Below, piece by piece: positions 34,659-61,625 of a stretch of 64,000 bases of DNA (within the stretch, counting starts at the first letter, position 1; each line of letters begins with the position of its first letter). This DNA is from Chrysogorgia sp. JL179-B06 (taxonomy: Eukaryota > Cnidaria > Anthozoa > Scleralcyonacea > Chrysogorgiidae). A program made the position numbers and the translations under genes. Under the pieces are notes generated by a model. That model searched no databases. It was not told the origin of the DNA and worked only from the letters and a program-made list of their open reading frames with translations. Location: the NCBI GenBank assembly GCA_035772405.1, contig JAYKKM010000473.1, positions 62,001-126,000 on the forward strand, given 5' to 3'.

Positions 34659-34880
34659 AATATTGACAGGGCCGAATTAACGTCGCGCGAGGCCCGTGAC
34701 AGATTTTCAGCGCGAGGCCCCCGTACCCCCCCCCCCCGTTATGAAAACCTAACTAATTGAATTCAAGGACACAAAATTGTTAAATAATCGTTTTGAATTT
34801 TATCCGCAAATCATCGCAATTTCGATTGTGTCAACAAGTATAAACAGGATCATATAACAGCTCAGCGCAACTAGAGCTTA

Positions 34881-35460
34881 AGTAGTATAGAATATGGCGG
34901 TACCAGGCCACTTTTCAAAAAAACGAGTCGTTTTTAAAGAATCATCATATTTCATCGTTTGTGAGCATGTGGTGGAGCTATTATATAGTGATGTTGGTGC
35001 GTGTGGTTGGGTCATAATATAGTGATGTTGATGCATGGTTGAGTCATTATGTAGTGGTATTGACGTGTGTTTGAGTGGTTATGTACCATAACTTAGTGGG
35101 GTGGTACCAGGCCACTTTTCAAAAAAAAACGAGTCGTTTTTTAAAGAATTACTATATTTTCCAAAATTATATTTGTTTCTGGCGGTACCAGGCCACTTTT
35201 CCAAAATTGGATTTGTTCTAAAGTATATATATTTTCTCATGTGTGGGTACATGGTAGGATTACTATGTAGTGGTGTTGGCACGCAGTTAGGTGGTTACGC
35301 ACTACAACTTGGTTATGTTTGGTGAGGATTGTTGCAGTTCAGTCAGGTGGGTCTTGGTATTGGTTCAAATATATTGTTTCGATACGAGTCGTTTTACGAG
35401 TCGTTTTACGAGTCGTCTCGAAATGTGTCGTTTTTAAATGTGCTGTAAAATGTGTCGATA
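34881..35460. repeat. Left terminal region of the palindromic element
   Basis: The region contains three direct copies of GGTACCAGGCCACTTTTC (about 34899, 35104, 35184), a degenerate array of about 31-bp units with ATAGTGATGTTG and GTGGTATTGACG (34985-35085), and the 9-mer ACGAGTCGT at 34923, 35129, 35384, 35396 and 35408. The mirror copy occupies 45231-45810. Tandem repeats near the ends are common in Polinton termini. Confidence 0.85.
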
Positions 35461-35497
35461 AATTAGTTAAATTATAAATTTTTTCTTTTTATTGAAT

Positions 35498-38400
35498 CTA
35501 TTTTTCTTTTATTTTATAATGTCCATATGCGTAGCTACTAATACCATCTTTAAGGATGTATCTTTTGTCGTCGAAACAACTCAGTGATATTTTGTTTATC
35601 TCATAACTACCTAGTTGATGGTTACTACTTCTTATGGCTCTCATCTTGTGGGATATTTGTTTGTTATTTACTAAAACATCCTTATAGCTATCGTGTCTTA
35701 TGTTCTTTCTCACAACGCTCTTCTTAACACCTTTAGCAGTCTTTCCACCTTTTCCGTCTTCTTTTAGGTAGCTATACATCTTGGATCTTAAACCTACGAA
35801 CTCAACGATGGGGACTCCTGACGTTTCGTCTTTCATTTTACCAATAACTTTCTTGTTTGTGGTATCAAAGTATGGAGATGACTTATCATATCCACTAAAG
35901 TCAAACATGCTTTTGTCAGCGTAGATGTCTTTATATATGTCGTCCGTCTCAATCTCATATGTTAAACTGTCTGTGTCAGTGAACAGTAACTTGGAACTAT
36001 ATTTCTTTTTCACGTAATTGTAGTGAAAGTCGTACATCAATAATTTCGATAGATCAAGAATACACATACCTACATATGCTGGCTTGTTTAAAGTTAGCGT
36101 TTCTTTGATTCTATGTACAGCTACTAAGTTGTCGTTGAATATCTTACTACTTACAAAGGTTGGCTTAGAGGCGAGCTTCTTCAGTTTATCTTTATTTGTT
36201 ACCAGTTCAACGTTAACGCGCTTTCGAAGATTTTCCATGGTCTTTCCGAAGACACTGTTATTCATCAGTTTGAAGAAATCCTTTTCAAAGTCGTTCTTAG
36301 CATCTGTTCTTTTAACTGTGTTGAAGTCAATATAATCTTTCAACCATGGAGACTGGTTAAACTGTAACACTCTATATACTTTACTTACCTTCATTCCTAA
36401 GGACTTGTACAGCTGCAAGTTCCTATAGTGCACTACGTATCTCTTCTTATTGTTAAGACTTGGTATCAACTTGCTTACCTCTCCTATGGATATGTTGAAT
36501 TTGTCTTTTATTGTTCTGCAGTAGTCAGACAGTTTATCAACCTCTACTTTAGTTCTCTCTGGTGCTAGTGGATAGTCGTTGTGTAAGTCGTGTAACTCCT
36601 TTGGATACTCCAGATCAACCTCTAGTAATAGTCCTTTGCTTGAGTCGTCCTTGTATTTGTCAAGGTTGAACTTCTTGATCCACTTGAATCCTCCAGTTGG
36701 TAGGTACTGATTCATAGCCCAACCATATAGGTTGTTAGCGTCTAGATATACTATGTATTTCGATGGCTTACTATCGTAGTCCTTCATATATTTATTATTA
36801 GCCTTACCATATATATGTGTAATACAGGAGACACCACCTCTCATTCCTTTCTCAATAAACTGAAACATGTCAATATCAGTCATCAACTCTAGTTCCACTC
36901 CTGTCATCTTTAGAGCAGCGTCCCACGATAGTCCAGGTGATGTGAAGTAATGACAAGGATCTAGTTGGTAGTACTGTTTACATGTTCTTTCTGAAGTTCT
37001 CGAACACGTCAGACAATAGTAGCACATCAGTCTTGAGGTATACGTCGTGGTACTCACCCATATTATTCAAGTCGAACGTCTTCCACACTTCTTGTGCGTG
37101 TTCATAATCAGCGTCTGATATATGTTCGTCGTTTAGCACACTGTAGAAGCTTTCCTTTGAAGGTAGCTTTATATCTTCGAACTTATCGAAACTATCCATA
37201 TAGTCATATGGGTACACACCCTTTCTTGATACTAGTTCTAGTTCCTTGTCAGTGAATACCTCTGATGTGTTTTTTAAACACTCTTTACGAAGGTTGTTAA
37301 CCAAGCTGTCTAGACTAGAACCCATGAATTGGAAACTGTCGATGAATACGAGACTTTTTCCTAACATGAAAGCCATATATTTCTCCATGTTGTTTGGTAT
37401 AACATTGATGTTCTGCCCAAGTCCTCCAATATTTTGCATTATGAAGTGACTATCATATCCTCTCAAGTTGTGGAACACCACTGGTATCTTGTTGGTTAGT
37501 CTATGGTTTCTGTTACATAGTTGATGTGCAGAGCCTCTATACTTACCAGTTACATGACAATGATCTCTAACTCTTATGTCTCCACTTTTATATGTTTCAT
37601 CACAAATGTGACATTTGATTGATTCCTTGAAGTTAACCTTGTCAGTGGAAGTCATGACCATGTCTTTGCTAAAGTGTTCCTTTTTAATATTGTCACAATA
37701 CTTAACCTCTTCAAGCATCTTTTTCATAAACTTTTTGACTGCGTTCTCACCACGGAACGTCTCAACAGGTTTACTGTACTTGTTGTCGTAGCAGCAGACT
37801 ACCTTATAACCATACCCACAGTCCGTATGTTGTTGATACTTGTTAGTATACGACTTGTCTGACGATGGTGTTGCTGCACTTATCTTCTCTAAGATCGCCT
37901 CAAAGTCTGCGTATATGACGAACGGAACATCTAGTTGTTTGTGGAAATTTTTGTATTTCAACATATTGTTTCCTTTTTCAGGCATCTTAATTGCCTGCTT
38001 TCCGTTAACCACTATACAATTCTCTACGTGGTTCTTTAGTATAGCTTCTGTGCTAAAGCACTGTAGACAGTATCTACAAAAGTTTTTCTTGTGCTCGTGT
38101 TTAGACTGATTGAACATAAACCTATTAGTCCTTAATGTATACGTAGTGTTGTTTCTCGTCTTTCGTTATTAGCAACAGATCCATATGGTCTTCGTTACTT
38201 TCTTTGGATACATGTATCGGGAACGGCTGCTTGTTTTCATACCCAAACACGTTAATGTTTATATTATTTTTGACTTCTATTTTGTTGTACTGTTTAACTG
38301 ATACTGGGAAGTCGATCCCCTCATAGTCTACAGTGTTAACGTTTCTCTTATGTTTTGACACTCTTTGCGGTTTGTTGTCTACTGGGTTCTTGTGTAGTAT

Positions 38401-39126
38401 GTGGCACCACATAAAACACTTATTATCATCGTTCCTTATGTTAATCAAACCCTTTGACGCGTTCCTCAGTTCTGTTGGTAGCTCAACATAACTGGATCCT
38501 TTCAGAGGTTCGTATACTACCACGTTCACGTAGTGGTCGTCTATGTTGTCTATGACCCATCCAGAACCCTCTGATATCCACACAGCGATTCGGTTTATTA
38601 TCTCCTCACTAGACTGTTTTTAAGACCTATATATGTCACTAACACTATATATCGTCTTAGCATTACAGTTGAAGTATGCTACTTTATGTGTAGTTCTGTC
38701 GTCATCCAGTTGTTTCTCTAACGTCACTTTTAGTGTCTCAACGTATTTCAAACCTCTCAGTCTATCCAACTCTTTTGTCAGTATTAGACTCACAGCGACC
38801 CTCGACTTATTTATTTGCTGTAGTGGATCCTTATTATTGACCACCTCGACACTATATGATATAGTGTACCCTCTTAGAGATGCTCGTATCTGTGACGATG
38901 CAGGAAACTGATTAGGTTTCTCTAAGAGTGCTCTCTGTTTCTCAATAAAGAGCTTGAGTTTTGATGAGAAGTTTCTCTCCTCCAACACTACACGTGCTGT
39001 TCTGACCCTGGTGATGTGGTCTATTACACCTTGTCTTGATGCTCTTCTTAATAAGTCTATCCAATTATATCCAAGTATTTTGGCTTCACCCAAATACTTA
39101 GTAGACAGCTCTTTTAAAATATGCAT
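35498..39126 (-). pseudogene. Left-arm PolB (protein-primed type), broken
   Basis: This is the mirror copy of 41563-45193, with the same domains (see there). It has three lesions: an in-frame TAA at 38620-38622, a 2-bp loss near 38119 (the right arm has TTT where this arm has T), and a 1-bp gain near 36988 (CAGAAAGAAC against CAGAAGAAC in the right arm). The start is taken at the ATG at 39126, because an earlier ATG at 39144 lies inside the conserved promoter motif. The gene reads outward toward the left end of the element, unlike PolB in the 47030 Polinton, which reads inward. Confidence 0.9.
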
Positions 39127-39275
39127 CTTATTATCATACCACATGTTTTATTACGTTTTAAAAACGACTCGTTTTTATTATAAAAAATGGATCTAATTCC
39201 TGGAAAATCGTATAGATTCTAGGAAATGGGTCTAATTCCTGGAAAATCATATAGATTCCTGGAAAATCATATAGA

Positions 39276-39467
39276 TTATAATAAGGATGACGCCTCTAAA
39301 TTTCTCAAATGTTTTTTACTCTTCAAGTGTGCCCACTTAGAGCGAACGTGATATGTATCATCACATGTTTTACATATATACTTATGAGTTCTTACCCACT
39401 CTTTGGTTAATACTCTATTAGCCTCTGCAGCTTCTTCTTTAGTCTGGTAAATTCTGTGTCTCGTCAT
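39276..39467 (-). CDS. Left-arm small zinc-finger protein (63 aa)
   Basis: The protein starts MTRHRIYQTKEEAAEANRVL and has a single C2H2-like finger, CKTC-x(12)-H-x(6)-H, in its second half. It is homologous to the 71-residue protein at 51296-51511 of the full Polinton. The ATG at 39467 is preceded by the shared motif ACATACGGTATTATATA. It lies upstream of PolB on the same strand. Role unknown; a DNA- or RNA-binding regulator is an inference. This arm keeps the frame intact, while the right arm has one extra A. Confidence 0.75.
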   Translation of the reverse strand: MTRHRIYQTKEEAAEANRVLTKEWVRTHKYICKTCDDTYHVRSKWAHLKSKKHLRNLEASSLL

Positions 39468-39732
39468 TATATAATACCGTATGTTTTATTATGTTGAGAA
39501 ACGAGTCGAAGCAGGACCACCAACACCCCGTTTTGGGACCTTGGTCAAAATGACCCTTCTATCAATCACAAACATACTATCAGTAGGGGGTCACATGTAG
39601 TGTCTTAATATTTTACTACTAATTGTATGCTACTAAGACATCTTAGTTGTAGTCTTCAAAGGGGGCGTCGAAACGACGGGGCCTAAAAAACAAAACCACA
39701 CACAGTCTATATATCAGAACCAGCGGTGTGTC
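39468..39732. other. Non-coding stretch between zinc-finger and BRO relic
   Basis: The stretch contains a hairpin-like pair GGGACCTTGGTC / GACC and the words AGAACCAGCGGTGTGTCAG (about 39717-39735), which also occur on the minus strand of the full Polinton at 54294-54317. The mirror copy is 40958-41220, where two bases (TG) are missing in a CACATG/CATG context. Confidence 0.6.
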
Positions 39733-40160
39733 AGTCGATGAGAAAAGAAAGGTTCGAGATCTCAGGTCCCAAATTGGGACCCGAGATTTCGAGTGTCAGA
39801 ATAGACAAGTTTGGCAAATAAATGAGAGTGGTCTATATAGACGTACACATTGACGACATATATAAGGTCAAACGAGAGGTGTTTGAAGGGGGGCGCGAAT
39901 CAAGCCCCCCTTTAAACTTGCAACCAAACACTCTCCTCATATCAGAGCCAAGAGTTTACTCTCTAGTCTTCTTGTCGAAATTAGAGTCTGCTGAGAAGTT
40001 TAAAACATAGGTATTCGCAGAAGTATCACCATCTATTAGAAAGACAGGTCAGTTACACACAATATAACCAGTTGTCAAGTGAGTACTGCAATAGAAGATT
40101 CAAGAGTGATACCACGCTGTCTAATCATCAAAGACACTACGCGCAGCACTCTATCTATGA
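39733..40160 (+). pseudogene. Left-arm BRO-type gene, internally deleted
   Basis: Translation gives DEKRKVRDLRSQIGTRDFEC, then QVWQINESGLYR, then (after about 110 bp of unrelated sequence with a GC hairpin) FLSKLESAEKF and PSIRKTG. A C-terminal finger segment YCNRRFKSDTTLSNHQRHY follows. These are pieces of the BRO-N and zinc-finger parts of the fusion at 53388-54206. The N-terminal third of BRO-N and the whole VRR-NUC nuclease part are missing, and stops interrupt the frame. The first Cys of the finger is Ser here. Confidence 0.8.
39886..39912. other. GC-rich hairpin (left arm)
   Basis: AAGGGGGGC, a 9-base loop GCGAATCAA, then GCCCCCCTT. The mirror copy is at 40778-40804, and a near-identical hairpin is at 54338-54364 in the full Polinton. 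Conservation between two elements suggests a function, for example transcript end formation or replication, but this is inference. Confidence 0.75.
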
Positions 40161-40560
40161 GACGATTTAAGATGATCTATAAGATGATACTACGCGCAGC
40201 ACTCTATCTATGAGATAATCTGTGAGATAGTTGTAAGATAACTGTGAGATGGTCTGTGAGACAATCTATAAGATGATTTATAAACAAGATACTGCGCGTA
40301 GTACTCTATCTATGAGACGATTTAAGATGTACTGCGCGTAGTACTCTATCTATGGGATGATTTAAGACGATCTATAAAATGATCTTGCGCGCAGTACTCT
40401 ATCTATGGGATGATTTAAGACGATCTATAAGATGATCTTGCGTGCAGTACTCTATCTATGGGATGATTTAAGACGATCTATAAGATGATCTATAAGATGA
40501 TACTGCGCGCAGTACTCTATCTATGAGATGATTTAAGATGATCTATAAGATGATTTATAA
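40131..40560. repeat. Central direct-repeat array of the palindrome
   Basis: About seven degenerate units contain TACTGCGCGCAGTACTCTAT, then CTATGAGATGATTTAAGA and CTATAAGATGAT. All units have the same orientation, so this core is not part of the palindrome and separates the two arms. Each unit carries the self-complementary word ACTGCGCGCAGT. It begins where the BRO relic's finger sequence ends and seems to have expanded from the BRO 3' end (TATCTATGAGA words). Confidence 0.85.
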
Positions 40561-40957
40561 GATGATTAGACAGCGTGGTATCACTCTTGAATCTTCTATT
40601 GCAGTACTCACTTGACAACTGGTTATATTGTGTGTAACTGACCTGTCTTTCTAATAGATGGTGATACTTCTGCGAATACCTATGTTTTAAACTTCTCAGC
40701 AGACTCTAATTTCGACAAGAAGACTAGAGAGTAAACTCTTGGCTCTGATATGAGGAGAGTGTTTGGTTGCAAGTTTAAAGGGGGGCTTGATTCGCGCCCC
40801 CCTTCAAACACCTCTCGTTTGACCTTATATATGTCGTCAATGTGTACGTCTATATAGACCACTCTCATTTATTTGCCAAACTTGTCTATTCTGACACTCG
40901 AAATCTCGGGTCCCAATTTGGGACCTGAGATCTCGAACCTTTCTTTTCTCATCGACT
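40561..40957 (-). pseudogene. Right-arm BRO-type gene, internally deleted
   Basis: This mirror copy of the left-arm BRO relic has the same internal loss and the same GC hairpin (40778-40804). It is not translatable as one frame. Sequence identity with the left arm is essentially complete in the stretches I compared. Confidence 0.8.
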
Positions 40958-41220
40958 GACACACCGCTGGTTCTGATATATAGACTGTGTGTGGTTTTGT
41001 TTTTTAGGCCCCGTCGTTTCGACGCCCCCTTTGAAGACTACAACTAAGATGTCTTAGTAGCATACAATTAGTAGTAAAATATTAAGACACTACATGACCC
41101 CCTACTGATAGTATGTTTGTGATCGATAGAAGGGTCATTTTGACCAAGGTCCCAAAACGGGGTGTTGGTGGTCCTGCTTCGACTCGTTTCTCAACATAAT
41201 AAAACATACGGTATTATATA

Positions 41221-41412
41221 ATGACGAGACACAGAATTTACCAGACTAAAGAAGAAGCTGCAGAGGCTAATAGAGTATTAACCAAAGAGTGGGTAAGAAC
41301 TCATAAGTATATATGTAAAACATGTGATGATACATATCACGTTCGCTCTAAGTGGGCACACTTGAAGAGTAAAAAAACATTTGAGAAATTTAGAGGCGTC
41401 ATCCTTATTATA
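41221..41412 (+). pseudogene. Right-arm small zinc-finger gene, frameshifted
   Basis: The sequence is identical to the left-arm gene at 39276-39467 up to an A-tract near 41372, where this arm has one more A (AGTAAAAAAACATTTG). The frame therefore changes at the last His of the finger. The ATG at 41221 follows AATAAAACATACGGTATTATATA. Confidence 0.8.
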
Positions 41413-41562
41413 ATCTATATGATTTTCCAGGAATCTATATGATTTTCCAGGAATTAGACCCATTTCCTAGAATCTATACGATTTTCCAGGAATTAGATCC
41501 ATTTTTTATAATAAAAACGAGTCGTTTTTAAAACGTAATAAAACATGTGGTATGATAATAAG

Positions 41563-44500
41563 ATGCATATTTTAAAAGAGCTGTCTACTAAGTATTTGGG
41601 TGAAGCCAAAATACTTGGATATAATTGGATAGACTTATTAAGAAGAGCATCAAGACAAGGTGTAATAGACCACATCACCAGGGTCAGAACAGCACGTGTA
41701 GTGTTGGAGGAGAGAAACTTCTCATCAAAACTCAAGCTCTTTATTGAGAAACAGAGAGCACTCTTAGAGAAACCTAATCAGTTTCCTGCATCGTCACAGA
41801 TACGAGCATCTCTAAGAGGGTACACTATATCATATAGTGTCGAGGTGGTCAATAATAAGGATCCACTACAGCAAATAAATAAGTCGAGGGTCGCTGTGAG
41901 TCTAATACTGACAAAAGAGTTGGATAGACTGAGAGGTTTGAAATACGTTGAGACACTAAAAGTGACGTTAGAGAAACAACTGGATGACGACAGAACTACA
42001 CATAAAGTAGCATACTTCAACTGTAATGCTAAGACGATATATAGTGTTAGTGACATATATAGGTCTTAAAAAACAGTCTAGTGAGGAGATAATAAACCGA
42101 ATCGCTGTGTGGATATCAGAGGGTTCTGGATGGGTCATAGACAACATAGACGACCACTACGTGAACGTGGTAGTATACGAACCTCTGAAAGGATCCAGTT
42201 ATGTTGAGCTACCAACAGAACTGAGGAACGCGTCAAAGGGTTTGATTAACATAAGGAACGATGATAATAAGTGTTTTATGTGGTGCCACATACTACACAA
42301 GAACCCAGTAGACAACAAACCGCAAAGAGTGTCAAAACATAAGAGAAACGTTAACACTGTAGACTATGAGGGGATCGACTTCCCAGTATCAGTTAAACAG
42401 TACAACAAAATAGAAGTCAAAAATAATATAAACATTAACGTGTTTGGGTATGAAAACAAGCAGCCGTTCCCGATACATGTATCCAAAGAAAGTAACGCAG
42501 ACCATATGGATCTGTTGCTAATAACGAAAGACGAGAAACAACACTACGTATACATTAAGGACTTTAATAGGTTTATGTTCAATCAGTCTAAACACGAGCA
42601 CAAGAAAAACTTTTGTAGATACTGTCTACAGTGCTTTAGCACAGAAGCTATACTAAAGAACCACGTAGAGAATTGTATAGTGGTTAACGGAAAGCAGGCA
42701 ATTAAGATGCCTGAAAAAGGAAACAATATGTTGAAATACAAAAATTTCCACAAACAACTAGATGTTCCGTTCGTCATATACGCAGACTTTGAGGCGATCT
42801 TAGAGAAGATAAGTGCAGCAACACCATCGTCAGACAAGTCGTATACTAACAAGTATCAACAACATACGGACTGTGGGTATGGTTATAAGGTAGTCTGCTG
42901 CTACGACAACAAGTACAGTAAACCTGTTGAGACGTTCCGTGGTGAGAACGCAGTCAAAAAGTTTATGAAAAAGATGCTTGAAGAGGTTAAGTATTGTGAC
43001 AATATTAAAAAGGAACACTTTAGCAAAGACATGGTCATGACTTCCACTGACAAGGTTAACTTCAAGGAATCAATCAAATGTCACATTTGTGATGAAACAT
43101 ATAAAAGTGGAGACATAAGAGTTAGAGATCATTGTCATGTAACTGGTAAGTATAGAGGCTCTGCACATCAACTATGTAACAGAAACCATAGACTAACCAA
43201 CAAGATACCAGTGGTGTTCCACAACTTGAGAGGATATGATAGTCACTTCATAATGCAAAATATTGGAGGACTTGGGCAGAACATCAATGTTATACCAAAC
43301 AACATGGAGAAATATATGGCTTTCATGTTAGGAAAAAGTCTCGTATTCATCGACAGTTTCCAATTCATGGGTTCTAGTCTAGACAGCTTGGTTAACAACC
43401 TTCGTAAAGAGTGTTTAAAAAACACATCAGAGGTATTCACTGACAAGGAACTAGAACTAGTATCAAGAAAGGGTGTGTACCCATATGACTATATGGATAG
43501 TTTCGATAAGTTCGAAGATATAAAGCTACCTTCAAAGGAAAGCTTCTACAGTGTGCTAAACGACGAACATATATCAGACGCTGATTATGAACACGCACAA
43601 GAAGTGTGGAAGACGTTCGACTTGAATAATATGGGTGAGTACCACGACATATACCTCAAGACTGATGTGCTACTATTGTCTGACGTGTTCGAGAACTTCA
43701 GAAGAACATGTAAACAGTACTACCAACTAGATCCTTGTCATTACTTCACATCACCTGGACTATCGTGGGACGCTGCTCTAAAGATGACAGGAGTGGAACT
43801 AGAGTTGATGACTGATATTGACATGTTTCAGTTTATTGAGAAAGGAATGAGAGGTGGTGTCTCCTGTATTACACATATATATGGTAAGGCTAATAATAAA
43901 TATATGAAGGACTACGATAGTAAGCCATCGAAATACATAGTATATCTAGACGCTAACAACCTATATGGTTGGGCTATGAATCAGTACCTACCAACTGGAG
44001 GATTCAAGTGGATCAAGAAGTTCAACCTTGACAAATACAAGGACGACTCAAGCAAAGGACTATTACTAGAGGTTGATCTGGAGTATCCAAAGGAGTTACA
44101 CGACTTACACAACGACTATCCACTAGCACCAGAGAGAACTAAAGTAGAGGTTGATAAACTGTCTGACTACTGCAGAACAATAAAAGACAAATTCAACATA
44201 TCCATAGGAGAGGTAAGCAAGTTGATACCAAGTCTTAACAATAAGAAGAGATACGTAGTGCACTATAGGAACTTGCAGCTGTACAAGTCCTTAGGAATGA
44301 AGGTAAGTAAAGTATATAGAGTGTTACAGTTTAACCAGTCTCCATGGTTGAAAGATTATATTGACTTCAACACAGTTAAAAGAACAGATGCTAAGAACGA
44401 CTTTGAAAAGGATTTCTTCAAACTGATGAATAACAGTGTCTTCGGAAAGACCATGGAAAATCTTCGAAAGCGCGTTAACGTTGAACTGGTAACAAATAAA

Positions 44501-45193
44501 GATAAACTGAAGAAGCTCGCCTCTAAGCCAACCTTTGTAAGTAGTAAGATATTCAACGACAACTTAGTAGCTGTACATAGAATCAAAGAAACGCTAACTT
44601 TAAACAAGCCAGCATATGTAGGTATGTGTATTCTTGATCTATCGAAATTATTGATGTACGACTTTCACTACAATTACGTGAAAAAGAAATATAGTTCCAA
44701 GTTACTGTTCACTGACACAGACAGTTTAACATATGAGATTGAGACGGACGACATATATAAAGACATCTACGCTGACAAAAGCATGTTTGACTTTAGTGGA
44801 TATGATAAGTCATCTCCATACTTTGATACCACAAACAAGAAAGTTATTGGTAAAATGAAAGACGAAACGTCAGGAGTCCCCATCGTTGAGTTCGTAGGTT
44901 TAAGATCCAAGATGTATAGCTACCTAAAAGAAGACGGAAAAGGTGGAAAGACTGCTAAAGGTGTTAAGAAGAGCGTTGTGAGAAAGAACATAAGACACGA
45001 TAGCTATAAGGATGTTTTAGTAAATAACAAACAAATATCCCACAAGATGAGAGCCATAAGAAGTAGTAACCATCAACTAGGTAGTTATGAGATAAACAAA
45101 ATATCACTGAGTTGTTTCGACGACAAAAGATACATCCTTAAAGATGGTATTAGTAGCTACGCATATGGACATTATAAAATAAAAGAAAAATAG
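41563..45193 (+). pseudogene. Right-arm PolB (protein-primed type), one frame break
   Basis: This family-B DNA polymerase of the protein-primed (Polinton/adenovirus-like) type would replicate the element. After an N-terminal basic region it shows a C4-like finger CRYCLQCF, exonuclease motif YADFEAI (about 42778), an embedded endonuclease VII-like zinc module CHICDETY...DHCHVTGKYRG...CN, NLRGYDSHF, YDYMDSF, and polymerase motifs YLDANNLYGW, KLMNNSVFGK and FTDTDSLTY. One break separates codons 1-169 from the rest at GGTCTTAAAAAACAG (42062-42076). The left arm has one A fewer there and an in-frame TAA instead. The start is the ATG at 41563; the ATG at 41545 lies inside the promoter motif. Confidence 0.92.
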
Positions 45194-45230
45194 ATTCAAT
45201 AAAAAGAAAAAAATTATAATTTAACTAATT

Positions 45231-45810
45231 TATCGACACATTTTACAGCACATTTAAAAACGACACATTTCGAGACGACTCGTAAAACGACTCGTAAAAC
45301 GACTCGTATCGAAACAATATATTTGAACCAATACCAAGACCCACCTGACTGAACTGCAACAATCCTCACCAAACATAACCAAGTTGTAGTGCGTAACCAC
45401 CTAACTGCGTGCCAACACCACTACATAGTAATCCTACCATGTACCCACACATGAGAAAATATATATACTTTAGAACAAATCCAATTTTGGAAAAGTGGCC
45501 TGGTACCGCCAGAAACAAATATAATTTTGGAAAATATAGTAATTCTTTAAAAAACGACTCGTTTTTTTTTGAAAAGTGGCCTGGTACCACCCCACTAAGT
45601 TATGGTACATAACCACTCAAACACACGTCAATACCACTACATAATGACTCAACCATGCATCAACATCACTATATTATGACCCAACCACACGCACCAACAT
45701 CACTATATAATAGCTCCACCACATGCTCACAAACGATGAAATATGATGATTCTTTAAAAACGACTCGTTTTTTTGAAAAGTGGCCTGGTACCGCCATATT
45801 CTATACTACT
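45231..45810. repeat. Right terminal region of the palindromic element
   Basis: This is the mirror of 34881-35460, with the same three GGTACC-containing direct repeats and the same ACGAGTCGT words in reverse complement. It ends CCGCCATATTCTATACTACT at 45810. Confidence 0.85.
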
Positions 45811-45852
45811 AGCTTACATGCATATTGCATATTTTCCTGGGGCCAAGCCTAG

Positions 45853-47023: not shown

Positions 47024-47029
47024 GAAAAC

Positions 47030-47242
47030 CGTAGTATAGAAAGTGGGGCTACCAGCACATTTTTCCATTTTTCATGTCTCAACTTCTCTGGAGAACGTAG
47101 CACTTTTTCCGTTTTTGGATTCCGCATATAACTTTCGAGTAAATATGTGGAATCCAAAAACGGAAAAAGTGCTACGTTCTCCAGAGAAGTTGAGACATTC
47201 AAATGGAAAAAGTGTGCTGTTACCACCACTTTCGAGACTACT
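47030..47242. repeat. Left terminal hairpin of the Polinton
   Basis: The first 213 bp fold on themselves. The outer arm GTAGTATAGAAAGTGGGGCT pairs with the inner arm ending ACCACTTTCGAGACTACT at 47242, and between them a near-perfect stem of about 60 bp (TCTCAACTTCTCTGGAGAAC... with its complement) surrounds a loop near 47125-47150. The inner arm differs from the outer at fixed positions (CTC for TAT) that recur at the right end. Confidence 0.85.
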
Positions 47243-47273
47243 AATAGACAATGTGTCACATGGTTTGGAGTCT

Positions 47274-50200
47274 ATGAGGCGTGTGTCAGATAGTAGGCTA
47301 CAGAGTGAGGTGTCTAGTCGTGGGGCTGCTGTGGGTGAGGATGTCGCTCGTAACAAGACTATGTCAAGTGATATTACACATGATCCTGATATGGACTTTA
47401 TTTTAGGTCATGAGTCGAGTGGGGTTTATGATTCAGAAGGGTCTAAGGACTTAACTATATTAAATAATAAAACGACTCGCATGAAAAGGTCTAAGGACTT
47501 AGCTATATTAAATAATAAAACGACTCGTGTGAAAATGTCTGAGAGTAAACGTAACCCTATTGTGGATGGTAATGTCGCTCGTAGTGGTGCACGTGGTCCT
47601 GCTATAGGTTCTGGTAACTTAGTTATACCGAATGTTAAGATGAGTTTTCTAAAGAGGATGTCTGGCTATCTAGCTGACGCTAAAGCATTGGGGTATAAGT
47701 GGATGGACCTTATTAGAAAGGTATCTAGAGAGGACGTTATTAATAGAGTCACCAGAGTTAGGGAGGTCAGAGAGGCTAGACGCGATCTTAGACGATATGT
47801 TAAGAGGTCACGATTAAGTCAGGAGGTCTCAGACAAAGAGTATGAGAGAATCACTAGCCTTATTGCTAAGACGCGTCCTACTGTAGTACAAAGGAAAGTT
47901 GCTCTCAAAGGGTACACCAAGTCGTATAGTGTTGAGGTGGTCGACAATAAGGATCCACTAAAACAACTAGTCAAGACTAGAGGAGTAGTGGGCTTGGCTT
48001 TACAGAAAGAGTTAGAGAGACTGAAAGGTTTAAAGTTTTCTGAGACATTGAAAGTAACTCTAGAGAAACAAATTGGTGACGGAGAGTCTGTGTTTAAGAC
48101 AGCCTTCTTCAATAGTATAGTCAAAACAGTGACTAGTAGTGTTGATATTAGTGGGACTACGAATCAAGCTAGTGAGGAGATAGTAAATCGTATAGCTGTA
48201 TGGTTGTCAGAAGGGTCTGGGTGGGTTGTGGACAGTGTTAGTGATCACTATATTAACGTGGTAGTGTATAAGCCTCTTAAAGGATCGAGTTATGTTGAGC
48301 TTCCAGATGAGTTGAGGAACGCGTCGAAAGGTTTGATTAATATAAAGAATGAAGATGACAAGTGTTTCATGTGGTGTCACGTGTTACACAAATGTCCTGT
48401 GGGAAAGAATCCGCAGAGAGTGTCGAAGCATAAGAAGAACGTAGGTTCTGTCAATTATGAGGGAGTGAGATTTCCAGTGGATACGAAACAGTACAAAAAG
48501 ATAGAGAGGCAGAATGATATTAGCATCAGCGTGTTTGGATATGAGGACAAGCAGCCATTCCCTATCTACGTTTCTGAGGAGAAGTGTGAGGATCATATGG
48601 ACCTACTGCTAATAACGAATGGTGTTAAACGACACTACGTGTACATCAAAGACTTTGGTAGGTTTATGTGTGGTCAGTCTAATCACAAGTGTCGCAAGAA
48701 TTTCTGTAGGTACTGTCTTCAGTGTTTTACTACCAATGAGATTCTAGAGAATCATAAGGAGGTTTGTATGGTGGTAAATGGTAAGCAAGCGATCAAGATG
48801 CCAGTCGAAGAAGACAGTACTCTTGAGTACGTAAATTACCACAAACAATTAGAGGTACCATTCGTAATATACGCAGACTTCGAGGCTATCACAGAGAAGG
48901 TCGACAACGTGACACCACTCACAGGATCGTACACTAGCGAGTACCAAAGACACACGGACTGTGGGTATGGATACAAAGTAGTGTGCTGTTACGATGATAA
49001 ATATAGTAAACCAGTAGAGATGTTTCGAGGTCAGAAAGCGGTTAAGAAGTTCATGAAAAAGATGTTACATAACTTAGTTAAGAAGTTCATGAAAAAGATG
49101 TTAGAGGAGGTTAAATACTGCAAGAAAGTTAGAAAGGAACATTTTAATAAGGACATGGTGATGACCATAGCTGATAAGGTTAACTTCAAGGAAGCGACTA
49201 AATGTCATATTTGCGATGGAAAATATAAACGTAAAGACGTGAGAGTTAGAGATCATTGTCATGTCACTGGTAAATATAGAGGTTCAGCACATCAGTTATG
49301 TAATAGGAACTATAGATTGACTGATAAGATACCTGTCATATTTCATAATCTAAGAGGATATGATAGTCACTTCATAATGCAAGAGATAGGTAAGATAGGT
49401 CAGAAAATCAACGTCATACCAAATAATATGGAGAAATATATGGCATTCATGTTAGGTAAACATCTAGTGTTTCTAGATAGTTTCCAATTCATGAGCTCTA
49501 GTCTAGCCAACCTAGTGAACAACCTACCAAAGGACTGTCTCAAGTACACGTCTGAACTATTTCAAGGTAAGGAGTTAGAGTTGGTGTCGCGAAAAGGTGT
49601 GTACCCATATGACTATATGGATAGTTTCGATAAGTTTAACGAACTTGAGTTGCCATCAAAGGAGAGTTTCTACAGCATCCTAAACGATGAGCATGTGTCA
49701 GACACAGACTATGAGCACGCTCAAGAAGTGTGGAAGACAATGGGTGTGGAGAATATGGGTGGGTACCACGATTTGTACCTAAAGTCTGACGTATTACTAC
49801 TGGCTGACGTGTTCGAGAACTTTAGAAGAACGTGTAAACAGTACTACCAATTAGATCCTTGTCATTACTTCACGTCACCTGGACTATCGTGGGACGCTGC
49901 TCTAAAGATGACGAGAGTGGAACTAACGTTGATGACTAACATTGATATGTTTCAGTTTATTGAGAAAGGAATGCGAGGTGGTGTCTCTTGTATAACACAT
50001 AGATATAGTAAGGCTAATAACAAATATATGAAGGACTACGATAGTAGCAAGCCATCGAAATACATATTATATCTAGATGCTAATAACCTTTATGGTTGGG
50101 CTATGAGTCAGTATCTACCGACTGGTGGATTTGAGTGGGTTGAGGGTTTTGATATCAATAATTTATACAAGTATGGTAACGACTCAGACAAGGGGTTGAT

Positions 50201-51363
50201 ACTTGAGGTTGATTTAGAGTATCCAGAGGATTTGCATGATATGCATAACGACTATCCTTTAGCCCCTGAGAGGATGAAAGTGAGTAGTGACATGTTGTCA
50301 AACTATTGTAAGACAATCCAAGATAAGTTTAAGATATCTGTAGGAGAGGTTGCAAAACTTGTACCTAACCTAAACGACAAGACTAAGTACGTAGTTCATT
50401 ATAGAAACCTACAATTATACAGGAGTTTGGGAATGAGTGTTAAGAAGGTACATAGAGTACTTCAATTCGATCAGTCACCATGGCTCAAGCAATATATCGA
50501 CTTTAACACGGACAAGAGAACCCAAGCAAAGAATGACTTTGAGAAAGACTTTTTCAAACTTATGAATAATAGTGTGTTTGGAAAGACTATGGAGAATCTA
50601 CGAAAGCGTGTGAATGTGGAGTTAGTGACAGACAAGGAAAAACTGAAGAAACTAACGTCAAAACCAACCTTTGTGAGCAGTAAAATATTTGACAATAACT
50701 TGGTAGCAGTTCACAAGATCAAAGAGACACTAACTTTAAATAGACCAGCATATGTGGGTATGTGTATTCTAGACCTGTCGAATACATTGGTGTATGACTT
50801 CCACTACAATAACATCAAAAAGAAGTATGGCAACAGATCCAAACTACTATTCACAGACACGGATAGCCTAATGTATGAGATTGAGACGGATGATGTGTAC
50901 AAATACATGTACGCTAACAAAGAAGTGTTCGACTTTAGTGGATATGACAAGTCATCTCCCTACTTCGACTCAACTAACAAGAAGGTCATTGGTAAAATGA
51001 AGGACGAGACGTTTGGAGTCCCTGTCGTTGAGTATGTTGGTTTAAGGTAAAAAAATGTATAGCTACGTGAAAGAGGATGGAAAAGGCGGGATGACTGCTA
51101 AAGGTATCAAGAAGAGTACCATTAGAAATAACATAAGACATGACAACTATAAAAGTGTCCTGACAAATGGTGAGCAAATGTCTCACATAATTAAAACTAT
51201 TCGGAGCAAGAGCCACCGACTAGGAAGCTATGAAATAAATAAGATATCATTGAGCTGCTTTGACGACAAGCGATTTATACTACCAGACGGTGTGTCTAGC
51301 TATGCGTATGGGCATTACGAAGTAGTTCAGAACTACTGTTTAAACTTCTCAAGTGTTTTCTAG
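47274..51363 (+). pseudogene. PolB, protein-primed family-B DNA polymerase
   Basis: This is the replicative polymerase of the element. An N-terminal extension of about 130 residues is low-complexity and includes a repeat NNKTTRxKxS around 47460-47535. Then come the conserved basic region shared with the palindrome's PolB, a finger CRYCLQCF, YADFEAI (about 48869), the endonuclease VII-like CHICDGKY...DHCHVTGKYRG module (49203-49310), NLRGYDSHF, YDYMDSF, YLDANNLYGW, KLMNNSVFGK and FTDTDSLMY (about 50850). At the A7 tract 51049-51055 a single extra base moves the last 100 codons into another frame. The frame is open from 47043, but only by GTG inside the terminal hairpin; the ATG at 47274 is the first plausible start. 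A 12-codon duplication (VKKFMKKML) occurs at about 49040-49100. Confidence 0.93.
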
Positions 51364-51511
51364 TCTTGATGTGCTTATATTTAGAGGTCACATGGTATGA
51401 CCGATCGCACGTCTCACACACCCACTTATGAGTTCTCATCCACTCTTTGGTTTGAGCTCTGGCTGCTATTAAAGCTTCTTCTTTGGTTTGGTAAATTCTA
51501 GGTCTTCCCAT
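51296..51511 (-). CDS. Small zinc-finger protein (71 aa)
   Basis: The protein starts MGRPRIYQTKEEALIAARAQ and carries one C2H2-like finger CETC-x(12)-H-x(6)-H. It is homologous to the 63-residue proteins in the palindromic element, so the gene is conserved between the two Polintons although its orientation relative to PolB differs. Its 3' end overlaps the PolB C-terminal frame by 68 bp, convergently. Its ATG overlaps the stop of the upstream gene (TAATG), and GGTAATATATA lies just before it. Role unknown. Confidence 0.8.
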   Translation of the reverse strand: MGRPRIYQTKEEALIAARAQTKEWMRTHKWVCETCDRSYHVTSKYKHIKTRKHLRSLNSSSELLRNAHTHS

Positions 51512-52140
51512 TATATATTACCATATATTTTATTTATCCACTCGTAGTATGGATCTCCTCTCCCATCCCAACCTAGATCCTTGTATACTACACTATACAG
51601 GTTGTGCTCGAATCGCGTCTTGACCTTACCAGGTTTGAGGTCGTTAAGACTACCTCTCAACTCCACACCTTTTCTAGAGCATATTCTTATGACATAGAAA
51701 ATATATTTCGATATGTTCTTGACAATCAGTTTGTTTCTTTTAAGAGACCATATTATCTCTATAAAATCACTGACCACTATTGGTATGTCACTATCGTTAA
51801 CTAGTCTTTTACTAGTCAACATTCTCTCTAACCACTTACTATAACTATGAGCCGATTTCTTGTACATCCAAATATTAGGTACGAAGTTTCTCACACGTCC
51901 ATAGGTAGTCTCTCCACACTTGTTACAACTAAATACACCATCTTCGATTGGGGTTCTGTGGTTACTACACTCGTAACAGTATGTGGTGTCGTACCACTTT
52001 TTTGGTGTCGCGTTCCTACTTCCGTTCTTGATCTCGTCTAATGTGTACCCTAACGTAGTACCACTCCACTTTTTTGATGTCTCAATCTCATCCAACGTGT
52101 ACCCAGCGTGGTATATTCTCATTGTACGTTCGTCAACCAT
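51511..52140 (-). CDS. VLTF3-like zinc-ribbon transcription factor (209 aa)
   Basis: The protein has an internal repeat GYTLDEI (residues 13-19 and 31-37), a zinc ribbon CYEC...CNKC (Cys 55, 58, 72, 75), and then a region with the order aromatic/basic residues, WL, DIPIVVSDFIEIIWSLKR, YVIRICSRK and LYSVVYKDLG. This order resembles the late transcription factor VLTF3 family of poxviruses and other nucleocytoplasmic large DNA viruses. If correct, it would drive late genes of the element. The similarity is by pattern only. It is translationally linked to the zinc-finger gene by a TAATG overlap. Confidence 0.6.
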   Translation of the reverse strand: MVDERTMRIYHAGYTLDEIETSKKWSGTTLGYTLDEIKNGSRNATPKKWYDTTYCYECSNHRTPIEDGVFSCNKCGETTYGRVRNFVPNIWMYKKSAHSYSKWLERMLTSKRLVNDSDIPIVVSDFIEIIWSLKRNKLIVKNISKYIFYVIRICSRKGVELRGSLNDLKPGKVKTRFEHNLYSVVYKDLGWDGRGDPYYEWINKIYGNI

Positions 52141-52170
52141 CTAAGTTAATATACTATATATATCTTTAGA

Positions 52171-52347
52171 TTATAGTGTAGTAACTTTATGGTTGAGTGT
52201 CTCCCACTCACATTTTATTGTTGTGACCTGTTTTAGAGCGTCTGATAGTAGTTGTTCCAACTCTTCTATCTGACGAATTTGGTAAAAGAGTGTCGAGTCA
52301 CGCTTTTTATTAAATTCCATAGCCATCTCCTTCAAAGTAGTGCTCAT
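52171..52347 (-). CDS. Small helical protein (58 aa)
   Basis: A frame begins MSTTLKEMAMEFNKKRDSTL and continues with a strongly helical, Leu- and Glu-rich stretch (IRQIEELEQLLSDALKQVTT), probably a coiled coil. Its ATG overlaps the stop of the next gene upstream (TAATG at 52345-52349), the same junction type used elsewhere in this block, which supports it being real despite its size. No family recognised. Confidence 0.6.
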   Translation of the reverse strand: MSTTLKEMAMEFNKKRDSTLFYQIRQIEELEQLLSDALKQVTTIKCEWETLNHKVTTL

Positions 52348-52763
52348 TATACTACTCTATATATTAAGTAACCTAAAGGTAGCCCAACAACTCCAACGAA
52401 TACCGTTTGATATTCTTTCATCTCATCCGAGGGTTTGTAATAGTCTGACAACTCAGGCTCTTTACTAAATGTCTTCCCATCATACTGTATCGTTAGTACT
52501 TGTCTTAGTTGGTCTAGAGCGTGGTTCGTGTCGTTTATGTCTGCGTTAGCATCTGACAGTTGTTGTCTTAGCTCCTGAATTTTGTCTCTCTGACGAATCT
52601 CGTTCTCATAGAACGACTCTTTAGCTCTAGCAAGACTCTCCAGTGCTTTGTTGTGTCTCTTTATCTCTATCTCGTAGCCGGTATGGTTTAGCTTACTGAA
52701 TAGAAATCCAGCTCCCGCGAACGCTATAGCGTTGAACAACCCACCTGCTACCAAGCTAGCCAT
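52347..52763 (-). CDS. Membrane-anchored coiled-coil protein (138 aa)
   Basis: The order is a hydrophobic N-terminus (LVAGGLFNAIAFAGAGFLF), a long charged helical region (residues 35-95; RQRDKIQELRQQLSDANADI), and a C-terminal hydrophobic segment (VFVGVVGLPLGYLIY). The architecture suggests a virion or membrane-associated structural protein; the function is not known to me. GTAATACATA precedes the ATG. Confidence 0.7.
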   Translation of the reverse strand: MASLVAGGLFNAIAFAGAGFLFSKLNHTGYEIEIKRHNKALESLARAKESFYENEIRQRDKIQELRQQLSDANADINDTNHALDQLRQVLTIQYDGKTFSKEPELSDYYKPSDEMKEYQTVFVGVVGLPLGYLIYRVV

Positions 52764-52779
52764 TATGTATTACGTTAGA

Positions 52780-53013
52780 TTATTTTGAGAACGGGTCAAT
52801 AGGTAAGTATTTCTTACTCTGTGCCCACTTAATGAGTAGCGTTGAGACACCTACAGCAGTCGCTAGCTTGAGGGTGCCCTTCACTGATTCAGGGGTGCCT
52901 AACGGTTCTTTTAGTACTTTCTTTGATGCCATAGACACAGCTACGGCTCCAGCAGTCACAAGGGCTGCGTCGTATAGCTCGTTCATCAGTTCTTTTCTGT
53001 CTATTGATGCCAT
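52780..53013 (-). CDS. Small membrane protein (77 aa)
   Basis: Two hydrophobic stretches are visible (AALVTAGAVAVSMA and LATAVGVSTLLIKWA), with a charged N-terminus. The ATG at 53013 follows ACATATCGTATAATATA, the shared upstream motif. Unknown family; position among other small membrane proteins suggests a virion component (inference). Confidence 0.65.
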   Translation of the reverse strand: MASIDRKELMNELYDAALVTAGAVAVSMASKKVLKEPLGTPESVKGTLKLATAVGVSTLLIKWAQSKKYLPIDPFSK

Positions 53014-53030
53014 ATATTATACGATATGTT

Positions 53031-53330
53031 TTAATCGAAGCTGTCGAGTTTACGTGGTGGTTTTATAACGACGTTCTTAGGCTCTTCAGTCACTACTTGT
53101 TTGTCTTGACTAATCGTGTAATACAGTGAACCAGCGGCTATTACCACTCCTATAGTACCTATGATGTATCCATAGTTAAAACTATCGTCCTCACTTATCA
53201 CTCTCTCTCTCATCTTCCTCTCTTTAGCTGCTTTAGATATGGCAGCCAAGCGTTTGCCTGCCTCTACTCTCTTAGGGTCTTTGACCCTTGTTGTCGACGT
53301 TATAATAGGTACGGACTCACTGTCAGCCAT
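53031..53330 (-). CDS. Single-span membrane protein (99 aa)
   Basis: The N-terminal half is basic (KDPKRVEAGKRLAAISKAAK), followed by one transmembrane segment (YIIGTIGVVIAAGSLYYTI, about residues 54-72) and a polar tail. The ATG follows CGTATAGTATAG. The basic half could contact nucleic acid. No family recognised. Confidence 0.65.
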   Translation of the reverse strand: MADSESVPIITSTTRVKDPKRVEAGKRLAAISKAAKERKMRERVISEDDSFNYGYIIGTIGVVIAAGSLYYTISQDKQVVTEEPKNVVIKPPRKLDSFD

Positions 53331-53387
53331 CTATACTATACGTGGTGTCTTGTTATAGATGACCTCATAGTCATCTCACAGATTATC

Positions 53388-54206
53388 TCACAGATAGAGT
53401 ATTCGATGAAAGTATTTTTGATGATTATACAGTGTGGTTTCACTCTTGAATCTCCTATTGCAGTACTCACACAGAACTCTGGAGTCTATCATATATGTTT
53501 CTATGAAATGTATTATCTCATGTTGGTCTGAGGATAGTAATGTGTTGTACCCTTGTGATCTTAGTCTCCTTAATACCCTCATCTGGTTATTCCTAATAAC
53601 CCCATTACCTTTCGGTGTTTTGAACTCTATAGCAAAACCATTGTATCTCTTATGTAGTTGTGGAACTATCAAATCTGGTTGCCCACCCACATACCCTTTG
53701 TTCCACCCATCTTTTCTTCTGGTTGTTGTGTCTTGATACTCACCGAGTCCTGGAATGGTTATTACCGGATGGTACTCTCTAATGTACTTCACAATGTCGT
53801 AGTGTAGATCTGTCTCATTCATTATCGATAACTGGTTGCATTGTGTGTAAACACCTGTCTTTCTAATAGATGGTAGGACTTCTGAGAACACCCATTTTCT
53901 AAAAGTCTCTGCCGACTCTAGTTTAGACGAGAATATTAGTCTATATAGACCACTTTCATTTATTTGCCAAACTTGCCTATTCTGAATTTGTCTATTTTGA
54001 CACTCGAAATCTCGGGTCCCAATTTGGGACCTGAGATTTTGAACCTTTCTTTTCTCATCATCTTTCACACGCTGTTGTATCGCTTTGGAAGGTCTTTTAT
54101 ATCCTAAGATTTCAGCTACCTCTTTTCCGTAGAACCAAATGTTATCTCCATCTTTTGTAGTAGTGACTGACGTGTTGTTATTTCTAAATATTTTAGTGAT
54201 ACTCAT
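53388..54206 (-). CDS. BRO-N / VRR-NUC / zinc-finger fusion (272 aa)
   Basis: Residues 1-118 match the BRO-N domain of viral BRO/KilA-type DNA-binding proteins (IWFYGKEVAEILGYKRPSKA, NESGLYRLIFSSKLESAETF, PSIRKTG). Residues 130-240 show a VRR-NUC-type nuclease pattern: GGQPDLIV near 174-181, EFKTPKG near 194-200, and a downstream Gln and helix. A C2H2 finger CEYC...H...H closes the protein. The predicted role is site-guided nuclease or regulator. The frame also opens with GTG at 54209; the ATG at 54206 is chosen. The motif ACATGTGGTATAGTATAG lies just upstream. Shortened relics lacking the nuclease part are in the palindromic element. Confidence 0.8.
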   Translation of the reverse strand: MSITKIFRNNNTSVTTTKDGDNIWFYGKEVAEILGYKRPSKAIQQRVKDDEKRKVQNLRSQIGTRDFECQNRQIQNRQVWQINESGLYRLIFSSKLESAETFRKWVFSEVLPSIRKTGVYTQCNQLSIMNETDLHYDIVKYIREYHPVITIPGLGEYQDTTTRRKDGWNKGYVGGQPDLIVPQLHKRYNGFAIEFKTPKGNGVIRNNQMRVLRRLRSQGYNTLLSSDQHEIIHFIETYMIDSRVLCEYCNRRFKSETTLYNHQKYFHRILYL

Positions 54207-54209
54207 CAC

Positions 54210-54337
54210 CTATACTATACCACATGTTTTATTTTTGTGTCAGAACAAACTCCTAATTGGTGATACTTCTGAGCACCTACTCTTGGAACTTGTCGACTGA
54301 CACACCACTGGTTCTTACATGTAGACCTGTGTTTAGG
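54210..54337. promoter_or_regulatory. Intergenic region with shared upstream motif
   Basis: AATAAAACATGTGGTATAGT lies on the minus strand before the BRO fusion. The block AGAACCAGTGGTGTGTCAG (minus strand, 54294-54317) is also found in the palindromic element at 39717-39735, so this stretch is conserved between the two elements. Confidence 0.55.
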
Positions 54338-54851: not shown

Positions 54852-54856
54852 ATATC

Positions 54857-55808: not shown

Positions 55809-55812
55809 TATG

Positions 55813-58080: not shown

Positions 58081-58085
58081 TGTAT

Positions 58086-60351: not shown

Positions 60352-60376
60352 AACATGACTTGTGTTATAATATAGT

Positions 60377-61609: not shown

Positions 61610-61625
61610 ACATATAGTACTCTAT

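What the first reader, a model, noticed from the sequence alone, without database searches (positions are those of the whole stretch)
34881..45810. A 10.9-kb Polinton-derived element that is one giant palindrome with a single 6-bp target duplication
Seen: two arms of about 5.25 kb are near-identical reverse complements, both ends are the same terminus (AGTAGTATAGAA...), and AGCTTA flanks the whole unit once on each side. Known: adenoviruses, which also use a protein-primed PolB, give rise to palindromic defective genomes with two copies of one end. Inference: this is the integrated counterpart, a fold-back or template-switch product of Polinton replication that was inserted by an integrase supplied in trans. 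The alternative is that an ordinary insertion was converted in place to a palindrome, which would also keep the duplication.
Basis: partly seen in the sequence, partly recalled or inferred. Interest (0 to 1): 0.92.

Follow-up and report, generated by a model that had tools for sequence, protein, structure and literature searches.

The report
A mirror-image jumping virus-like element
This genome holds a family of jumping DNA elements built as two mirror-image halves, each with the same DNA-copying gene, and the family seems to spread in this mirrored form while keeping its two halves almost identical, which is not how virus-like transposons of this class are usually built.

Summary
The palindrome at 34881-45810 is real: arms of 5249 and 5250 bp, 99.8% identical, a 431-bp repeat-rich spacer, AGCTTA on both sides. 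It is not a one-off. In the same 781-Mb assembly the fold-back boundary occurs in inverted pairs at 44 or more loci (100 of 117 exact sites listed); both arms were compared at 15 further loci and match at 95-100%. Of 20 loci read at both ends, 14 have their own exact 6-bp duplication. Within 15 elements the PolB arms differ by a median of 0.06%, between elements by a median of 5.1%; 15 of 15 arm pairs are monophyletic. The fold-back nucleotide is the same in 14 of 16 elements. PolB is under strong constraint (median dN/dS 0.08). No integrase matched in the pieces searched; integrase loci are abundant elsewhere. Best reading: one old snap-back of a Polinton founded a lineage that copies itself and inserts as a palindrome, keeps its arms identical through a self-complementary intermediate, and borrows integrase. 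Palindromes, movement and concerted arms are shown; the intermediate and the borrowed integrase are inferred.

The parts
34875..34880 (.). left copy of the 6-bp target site duplication, AGCTTA
34881..40129 (.). left arm: terminus, PolB block, Bro-N remnant
40130..40560 (.). spacer (core): tandem repeats; its left side continues like the 3' flank of a Polinton Bro-N gene
40561..45810 (.). right arm, reverse complement of the left arm
45811..45816 (.). right copy of the target site duplication, AGCTTA
42026..45193 (+). PolB-type ORF of the right arm, 1055 aa, with a sub-threshold EndoVII match
41545..42069 (+). 174-aa ORF; in some other copies it runs in one frame with PolB (1221-aa ORF in L026)
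35498..38583 (-). PolB of the left arm, split over three frames
38620..39144 (-). 174-aa ORF of the left arm
39721..40162 (+). remnant of a Bro-N gene; the last piece, 40079-40162, crosses the arm boundary and is 82% identical to 53386-53470 of the canonical neighbour
40614..40969 (-). mirrored Bro-N remnant in the right arm
47030..63711 (.). neighbouring canonical Polinton with a terminus of the same type and its own duplication GAAAAC at 47024-47029 and 63712-63717; example of a possible integrase donor
58086..59606 (+). rve integrase of the canonical Polinton
53388..54206 (-). Bro-N/VRR-NUC gene of the canonical Polinton, homologous to the sequence at the fold-back boundary

Best explanation
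The window holds one copy of a multi-copy family of palindromic Polinton-derived transposons. Founding step (inferred from the junctions): while a Polinton-type element was copied by strand displacement, a strand that had passed the Bro-N gene and entered the minisatellite behind it snapped back, GATGAT pairing with ATCATC at the Bro-N end of the same strand, and synthesis ran back to the terminus, giving two copies of one end. Since then (shown by the shared junction, separate sites and separate duplications) the palindrome itself has been copied and inserted. Each arm carries the same terminus (putative protein-primed origin) and the same PolB gene, which evolves under purifying selection. 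The displaced strand would be self-complementary and fold into a 5-kb hairpin with one duplex origin; mismatch repair in that hairpin, or renewed snap-back, would make the arms identical in each cycle (inferred). Insertion with 6-bp duplications is probably done by integrase from canonical Polintons with the same kind of end (inferred).
For: Palindromes: 15 of 15 further paired loci have mirrored arms, 95-100% over aligned pieces of 1.1-6.1 kb. Movement: exact 6-bp duplications, different in sequence, at 14 of 20 loci read at both ends, and a paralogous empty site for one. One origin: same fold-back nucleotide in 14 of 16 elements; 44 loci with an inverted pair of the boundary, reversed-pattern control 0 and 0. 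Polinton origin: the canonical Bro-N 3' flank runs into a similar minisatellite. Concerted arms: within-element PolB difference median 0.06%, between-element median 5.1%; 15 of 15 pairs monophyletic; C301a is 10% from any other sampled copy, its arms differ by 0.06%. Mirrored structure: PolB deletion with the same breakpoints in both arms of C301b, a foreign stretch of at least 3.4 kb in both arms of C301a. Constraint: median dN/dS 0.08 over 210 pairs, one pair undefined; an ORF of at least 1150 aa in 12 of 30 arms. Integrase: no match in the 31 pieces of the paired loci; 84 integrase loci besides the window's among 85 scored.
Against: No extrachromosomal or hairpin form has been seen. Chromosomal gene conversion could also keep arms alike. 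Of 20 loci, C351 has no duplication (1 of 6), C229 has lost a terminus, C23 gives 4 of 6 in an AT repeat, and C35a, C143 and C270 have 5 of 6. Two exact ones, TTTTTT (C348) and TACCTA (C344), lie in simple repeats and weigh little. C444 and C35b do not show the shared boundary. Within- and between-element distances overlap: C143 and C348 differ by only 0.06%, C270's arms by 2.3%. In six canonical flanks checked, GATGAT occurs in one only, so the pairing step is weakly founded. The direct parent is unknown. The middles of C301a and C270 were not fetched, so an integrase there is not excluded. Pfam gives only a sub-threshold EndoVII match for this PolB; the PolB label rests on homologues.
Confidence: 0.72

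Rival explanations
1. The palindrome spreads by transposition, but its arms are kept alike by gene conversion between the arms after insertion in the chromosome, as in mammalian Y palindromes (recalled).
For: Long near-perfect inverted repeats invite gene conversion; the mirrored deletion and foreign stretch fit it as well. C143 and C35a have near-identical arms but a mutated duplication, 5 of 6, as conversion after insertion would allow.
Against: The most diverged pair, C270 (2.3%), also has a mutated duplication, though this is weak given C143 and C35a. C175 carries a different insert in each arm that has not been copied across. dN/dS to the nearest copies stays at 0.06-0.14, so most divergence between copies seems to have arisen in active lineages.
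Confidence: 0.17
2. Each palindrome formed independently by fold-back of a non-palindromic parent at a sequence hot spot, and then inserted once.
For: The boundary has a short inverted match (ATCATC against GATGAT, 12 times in the window core), so the same fold could recur. C348 is symmetric to its centre, at a short palindrome of the core, as a second fold-back would be.
Against: No non-palindromic parent with arm-type sequence was seen: of the 18 unpaired sites among the 100 listed, 3 have a partner by other evidence, 10 are canonical Polintons, and 5 are truncated, altered or unresolved. Both junctions of the core are the same across diverged copies.
Confidence: 0.08
3. An ordinary Polinton insertion was converted to a palindrome in place, keeping its duplication.
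For: It would also leave one 6-bp duplication.
Against: It would have to happen at every site and stop at the same nucleotide in most. The TIR match found between the ends of the canonical neighbour is only 46 nt.
Confidence: 0.02
4. The palindromes are assembly or fold-back-read artefacts.
For: Long-read libraries can produce fold-back chimeras (recalled); some indels between the window arms lie in homopolymers.
Against: Each palindrome with both ends read stops at the terminus with different flanks, 14 of 20 with a matching 6-bp duplication; a fold-back read would run on into mirrored flank. The assembly keeps arms that differ (C270, C351).
Confidence: 0.01

Closest known systems
Polinton/Maverick transposons (polintoviruses)
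   Same: PolB-type gene, AGTAGTATAGAA-type terminus shared with a canonical Polinton 1.2 kb away, 6-bp duplication
   Different: 10.9 kb, a palindrome, two copies of PolB, no match to integrase, ATPase or most other canonical ORFs inside
Palindromic defective adenovirus genomes (recalled; no paper on them seen)
   Same: protein-primed replicon with two copies of one end, probably made by snap-back
   Different: those are by-products of infection; this one is inserted in the genome at many sites and its gene is under constraint
pGKL1-derived palindromic and hairpin plasmids of yeast (recalled; Kikuchi et al. 1985 seen only as a reference in PMC4443254; not held)
   Same: a PolB-type linear replicon reduced to a palindrome and its hairpin half
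   Different: extrachromosomal; here an integrating multi-copy family
Foldback/Galileo transposons (PMC3573991, passages seen)
   Same: long inverted repeats making up most of many copies
   Different: P-superfamily transposase, TIRs up to about 1.26 kb, 7-bp duplications, longest-TIR copies without transposase; here arms of about 5 kb each with a PolB gene
MITE-like deletion derivatives with inverted repeats (recalled)
   Same: depend on an enzyme from elsewhere for insertion
   Different: here a large gene is kept under purifying selection in both arms; among the loci examined only C301b has lost it entirely in both arms

Membership tests
[quoted passage not shown]
   6222 homologous proteins among the 7993 candidates scored, 67-70% identity in the 120 listed, 14 of these 120 with PF03175; PF03175 itself was not reached by the query in Pfam, and protein priming was not tested
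Polinton/Maverick | RVE-family integrase in the element | tested here: not met
   no tblastn match to the neighbour's integrase in the 31 pieces of the paired loci or in the window element; the middles of C301a and C270 were not fetched; present in the neighbour and at 84 other scored loci
Polinton/Maverick | FtsK/A32-type packaging ATPase and capsid genes | tested here: not met
   no match to the ATPase inside the window element or the paired elements; ORF347 and ORF147 matched only in the flanks of C362, ATPase only in the flank of C418. Capsid genes were not identified by Pfam in the neighbour, so for them this is not a clean test
Polinton/Maverick | terminal inverted repeats and 6-bp target duplication (recalled as the Polinton rule; seen in the neighbour) | tested here: met
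   14 of 20 loci exact, neighbour GAAAAC exact
Polinton/Maverick | length of 15-20 kb (PMC4028283, passage) | tested here: not met
   10.9 kb here; about 3.6 to 19.9 kb among the paired loci, most near 10-12 kb
Foldback/Galileo | P-superfamily transposase and 7-bp duplication (PMC3573991) | tested here: inconclusive
   duplications here are 6 bp, which is not met; P transposase was not sought by profile, only the ORFs of the arms were listed
Protein-primed hairpin/palindromic replicons (adenovirus, pGKL1 type) | extrachromosomal linear palindrome or hairpin with terminal protein | not testable with these tools
   needs DNA from the organism

The most novel reading that the evidence does not exclude
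A transposon lineage whose heritable unit is really half an element: it passes through a self-complementary hairpin in each cycle, so its two arms evolve as one (as the two LTRs of a retrotransposon are made from one template), it replicates itself with its own PolB and parasitises only the integrase of Polintons. This would be a replication-autonomous, integration-dependent satellite of Polintons.
Probability: 0.52. Interest if true: 0.88.

Novelty: new variant of a known kind. Interest (0 to 1): 0.82.

Why it matters
To my knowledge, how Polintons replicate has been inferred mainly from gene content. A family that has stayed palindromic while its copies diverged, with arms that evolve together, is a natural record of that replication: it fits strand displacement, a self-complementary single strand and snap-back, as in adenovirus. 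If arms are made alike at each transposition, arm divergence is an insertion clock. Selection on PolB without a linked integrase would show that the replication and insertion functions of Polintons can be uncoupled, giving a new satellite lifestyle. It also shows near-perfect palindromes of about 10 kb, usually taken as unstable, at many sites of one eukaryotic genome.

Tried and rejected
Rejected: assembly artefact and in-place conversion (see rivals). Rejected: a normal Polinton TIR; the TIR match found in the canonical neighbour is 46 nt. Rejected after a look: C35b and C444 as separate fold-back events; deletions at the spacer or inner arm can explain them. Not a palindrome in the fetched 6.4 kb: C418 (L042), one arm between pieces of canonical Polintons; C288 (L040) has only terminus-like sequence in 6 kb. 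Led nowhere: IMG/VR viral contigs by protein (3 pattern matches, none confirmed) and by terminus pattern (0). Paper searches for such elements (listings only, some capped: 25 of 44 listed, 25 of 32, 14 of 14, 15 of 754, 12 of 14, 12 of 30) showed no title or abstract start that describes one; I opened none of them for this beyond the passages cited. Kikuchi 1985 is not held. The host was not identified.

Limits of counts: one search scored 40 of 226 first-look candidates, 40 of 1672, 85 of 6571; one search listed 100 of 117 sites; one search scored 7993 candidates and listed 120. The loci were chosen by their terminus and for having a partner, so they lean towards palindromes; leans less. Of the 44 loci with a boundary pair, both arms were compared over most of their length in 12 (C35a, C143, C175, C229, C301a in part, C301b, C344, C348, C351, C375, C442, the window); in the others the pair alone was seen, or short pieces (C30, C101, C123, C428b). 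In one search ten further loci were tried: both termini were found in four; for C30 the pieces mirrored each other without a terminus, for C64, C208, C341 and C360 only one terminus was found, for C38 nothing matched. The fuzzy match was offset by 2-3 bases and some ends by 1-2; one search read all 20 again with a fixed anchor and gave the figures used; 649 comparisons between elements, none dropped; C301b (no PolB) and C288 are not in it. In one search C35a2_R and the canonical row were left out; the C143 pair has support 0.87 and the C348 pair none printed.
Full report
OBSERVATION. The palindrome is real. The arms are 34881-40129 and 40561-45810, 99.79% identical as reverse complements, with 4 substitutions and 5 indels. 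The spacer of 431 bp is rich in tandem repeats. AGCTTA stands directly outside both ends, and the flanks beyond differ. The right arm has a 1055-aa PolB-type ORF with a sub-threshold EndoVII match and a 174-aa ORF just upstream; PolB of the left arm is split over three frames. A canonical Polinton lies next door at 47030-63711, with rve integrase, A32-type ATPase and Bro-N genes, a terminus of the same type, a 46-nt TIR match and its own exact duplication GAAAAC.

NOT A ONE-OFF. The window is part of an unnamed 781-Mb, 522-contig assembly; its size, and the reverse transcriptase and Polinton genes, point to a eukaryote. The first 520 bases of the element match in inverted pairs at many loci, and so does the inner arm. 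I fetched pieces from both ends of 15 such loci. In 15 of 15 the arms mirror each other: 95-100% identity, aligned pieces of 1.1 to 6.1 kb; C175 and C270 are broken up by other sequence. These loci were chosen for having a partner.

THE PALINDROME MOVES. Of 16 loci with both ends looked at (15, the window), 11 have an exact 6-bp duplication, each with its own sequence: AGCTTA (window), AGTCGC, TTCCAA, AACTAG, ACAGTA, TTTTTT, TACCTA, AATACA, GAAGAA, AAAACA, TAGCAC. TTTTTT and TACCTA lie in simple repeats. Three have 5 of 6 (C35a, C143, C270); C351 has 1 of 6; C229 has lost its left terminus. I then tried ten more loci chosen by the fold-back boundary; both termini were caught in four: three exact (C101 GAACAT, C428b AACAAG, C439a CGTTAT), one 4 of 6 in an AT repeat (C23). 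All were read again with a fixed anchor: 14 exact of 20. C301b sits in a tandem array of units of about 280 bp; its joined flanks with one AGTCGC run across neighbouring empty units, with no gap within ten bases of the junction in 9 of the 10 spanning alignments (some are the same units seen through overlapping loci) and a 17-base gap abutting it in one.

ONE ORIGIN. In 14 of 16 elements the arm ends at the same nucleotide...TCTAATCATC, followed on one side by AAAG or GAAG and on the other by TTA or TTG; C444 and C35b are the exceptions and may be later deletions. Genome-wide the exact boundary pattern occurs 59 times forward and 58 reverse, the reversed control 0 and 0. Of the 100 sites listed, 82 form 41 inverted pairs with spacers of 272-3963 bp, median 558, and three more have their partner by other evidence (the window; C196, one mismatch; C254): 44 loci. 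Both arms were compared in 12 of them. Ten single sites are canonical Polintons: the Bro-N end is followed by ORF99 and ORF138 matches, and four of the ten lie about 5 kb from a listed integrase match (C149, C379, C416, C437). The other five are C35b (arms mirrored, second boundary missing), C35:642150 (part of a doubled locus), C148 and C381 (both run from core into other sequence) and C237 (core-like, no partner within 1.4 kb).

WHERE THE FOLD LIES. In the canonical copies the Bro-N end is followed by AAA(A/G)ATACTTTCATCGAATACTCTATCTGTGAGATAATCTGTGAGATGACTG-like repeats, and one side of the palindrome core continues in a similar way. So the core probably comes from the minisatellite behind Bro-N. 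The window core has 12 GATGAT and no ATCATC; pairing of GATGAT with ATCATC at the Bro-N end of the same strand would explain the other junction. Against this, GATGAT is present in only one of six canonical flanks checked. C348 is symmetric to its centre, but for two adjacent bases, and the centre is TACTACGCGTAGTA, a short palindrome of the core repeat, as a second, later fold-back would leave.

ARMS EVOLVE TOGETHER. PolB differs between the two arms of one element by a median of 0.06% (15 elements, maximum 2.3%), between elements by a median of 5.1% (649 comparisons, range 0.06-11.6%). The ranges overlap, since C143 and C348 are near-identical elements. All 15 arm pairs are monophyletic (C143 support 0.87, C348 none printed). 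C301a is 10% from its nearest sampled relative while its own arms differ by 0.06%. C301b lacks PolB in both arms with the same breakpoints (arm positions 577 and 4232), and C301a has the same foreign stretch of at least 3.4 kb from arm position 2420 in both arms. Against ongoing conversion: C175 has different inserts in its two arms. The most diverged pair, C270, has a mutated duplication, but so have C143 and C35a with near-identical arms, so a strict clock is not shown.

SELECTION. Over 210 pairs of 21 copies the median dN/dS of PolB is 0.08, and the two nearest partners of each copy give 0.06-0.14 (one pair undefined). ORFs of at least 1150 aa stand in 12 of 30 arms, in both arms in four elements (C143, C348, C375, C442). 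In L026 the only ORF over 120 aa is the PolB fusion of 1221 aa. Constraint could be inherited from unsampled non-palindromic relatives, but none was seen.

HOW IT PROBABLY WORKS. Shown: palindromic copies at separate sites, shared junction, concerted arms, constraint on PolB, no integrase match in the pieces searched (the middles of C301a and C270 were not fetched), and 85 scored integrase loci with the window's, 82 of them without a stop in the first match. Inferred: protein-primed copying from either end displaces a self-complementary strand; this folds to a hairpin whose stem end is a duplex origin; mismatch repair or renewed snap-back makes the arms identical; integrase from canonical Polintons inserts the product. 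Copying of an adenovirus single strand through a panhandle is known from the title of a 1988 paper in the reference list of PMC9863843; the rest is recalled.

COMPARISON AND NOVELTY. It works like palindromic adenovirus or pGKL1-derived replicons (recalled) that became integrating and heritable. It is Polinton-derived, but as a Polinton it fails integrase, ATPase and length. Galileo/Foldback elements share long inverted repeats but not the duplication length or coding arms (PMC3573991, passages). My paper searches (full text of an open library, listings only, some capped) showed no paper describing such a family; most subscription papers are not in that library.

OPEN. The host, the direct parent (PolB is inverted relative to the neighbour), and whether a hairpin exists in cells.

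Noticed in passing
47030-63711: A canonical Polinton next door; its PolB frame ends at 51050 with a further frame at 51055-51363, and its integrase lacks about 65 codons near residue 295 that lie between the two matched parts in other copies.
   Followed up: partly
47031-47241 and 63609-63715: Both end regions of the canonical Polinton are themselves imperfect palindromes (99-nt and 46-nt arms), so the ends could form hairpins.
   Followed up: no
L019/L020 (C362:773691-784847): This palindromic copy seems to be inserted inside another Polinton: matches to ORF347 and ORF147 lie in its left and right flanks.
   Followed up: partly
L009, L010, L039, L061 (C35:620054-647975): The same right arm and right flank occur twice about 15 kb apart, a tandem or assembly duplication of the locus; the duplication GATATA is exact with the second right end.
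   Followed up: partly
L042 (C418:1803900-1810300): A single arm of the family lies between ATPase and PolB pieces of canonical Polintons.
   Followed up: partly
L025/L026 (C348): An 11.3-kb palindrome symmetric up to its centre, at the short palindrome TACTACGCGTAGTA.
   Followed up: yes
23760-25723: A long degenerate tandem array with strong GC skew and overlapping long open frames on the + strand.
   Followed up: no
11398-11844, 407-586 and 63202-63277: Further imperfect palindromes in the window, with no match to this element in the self-comparison; the last lies inside the canonical Polinton.
   Followed up: no
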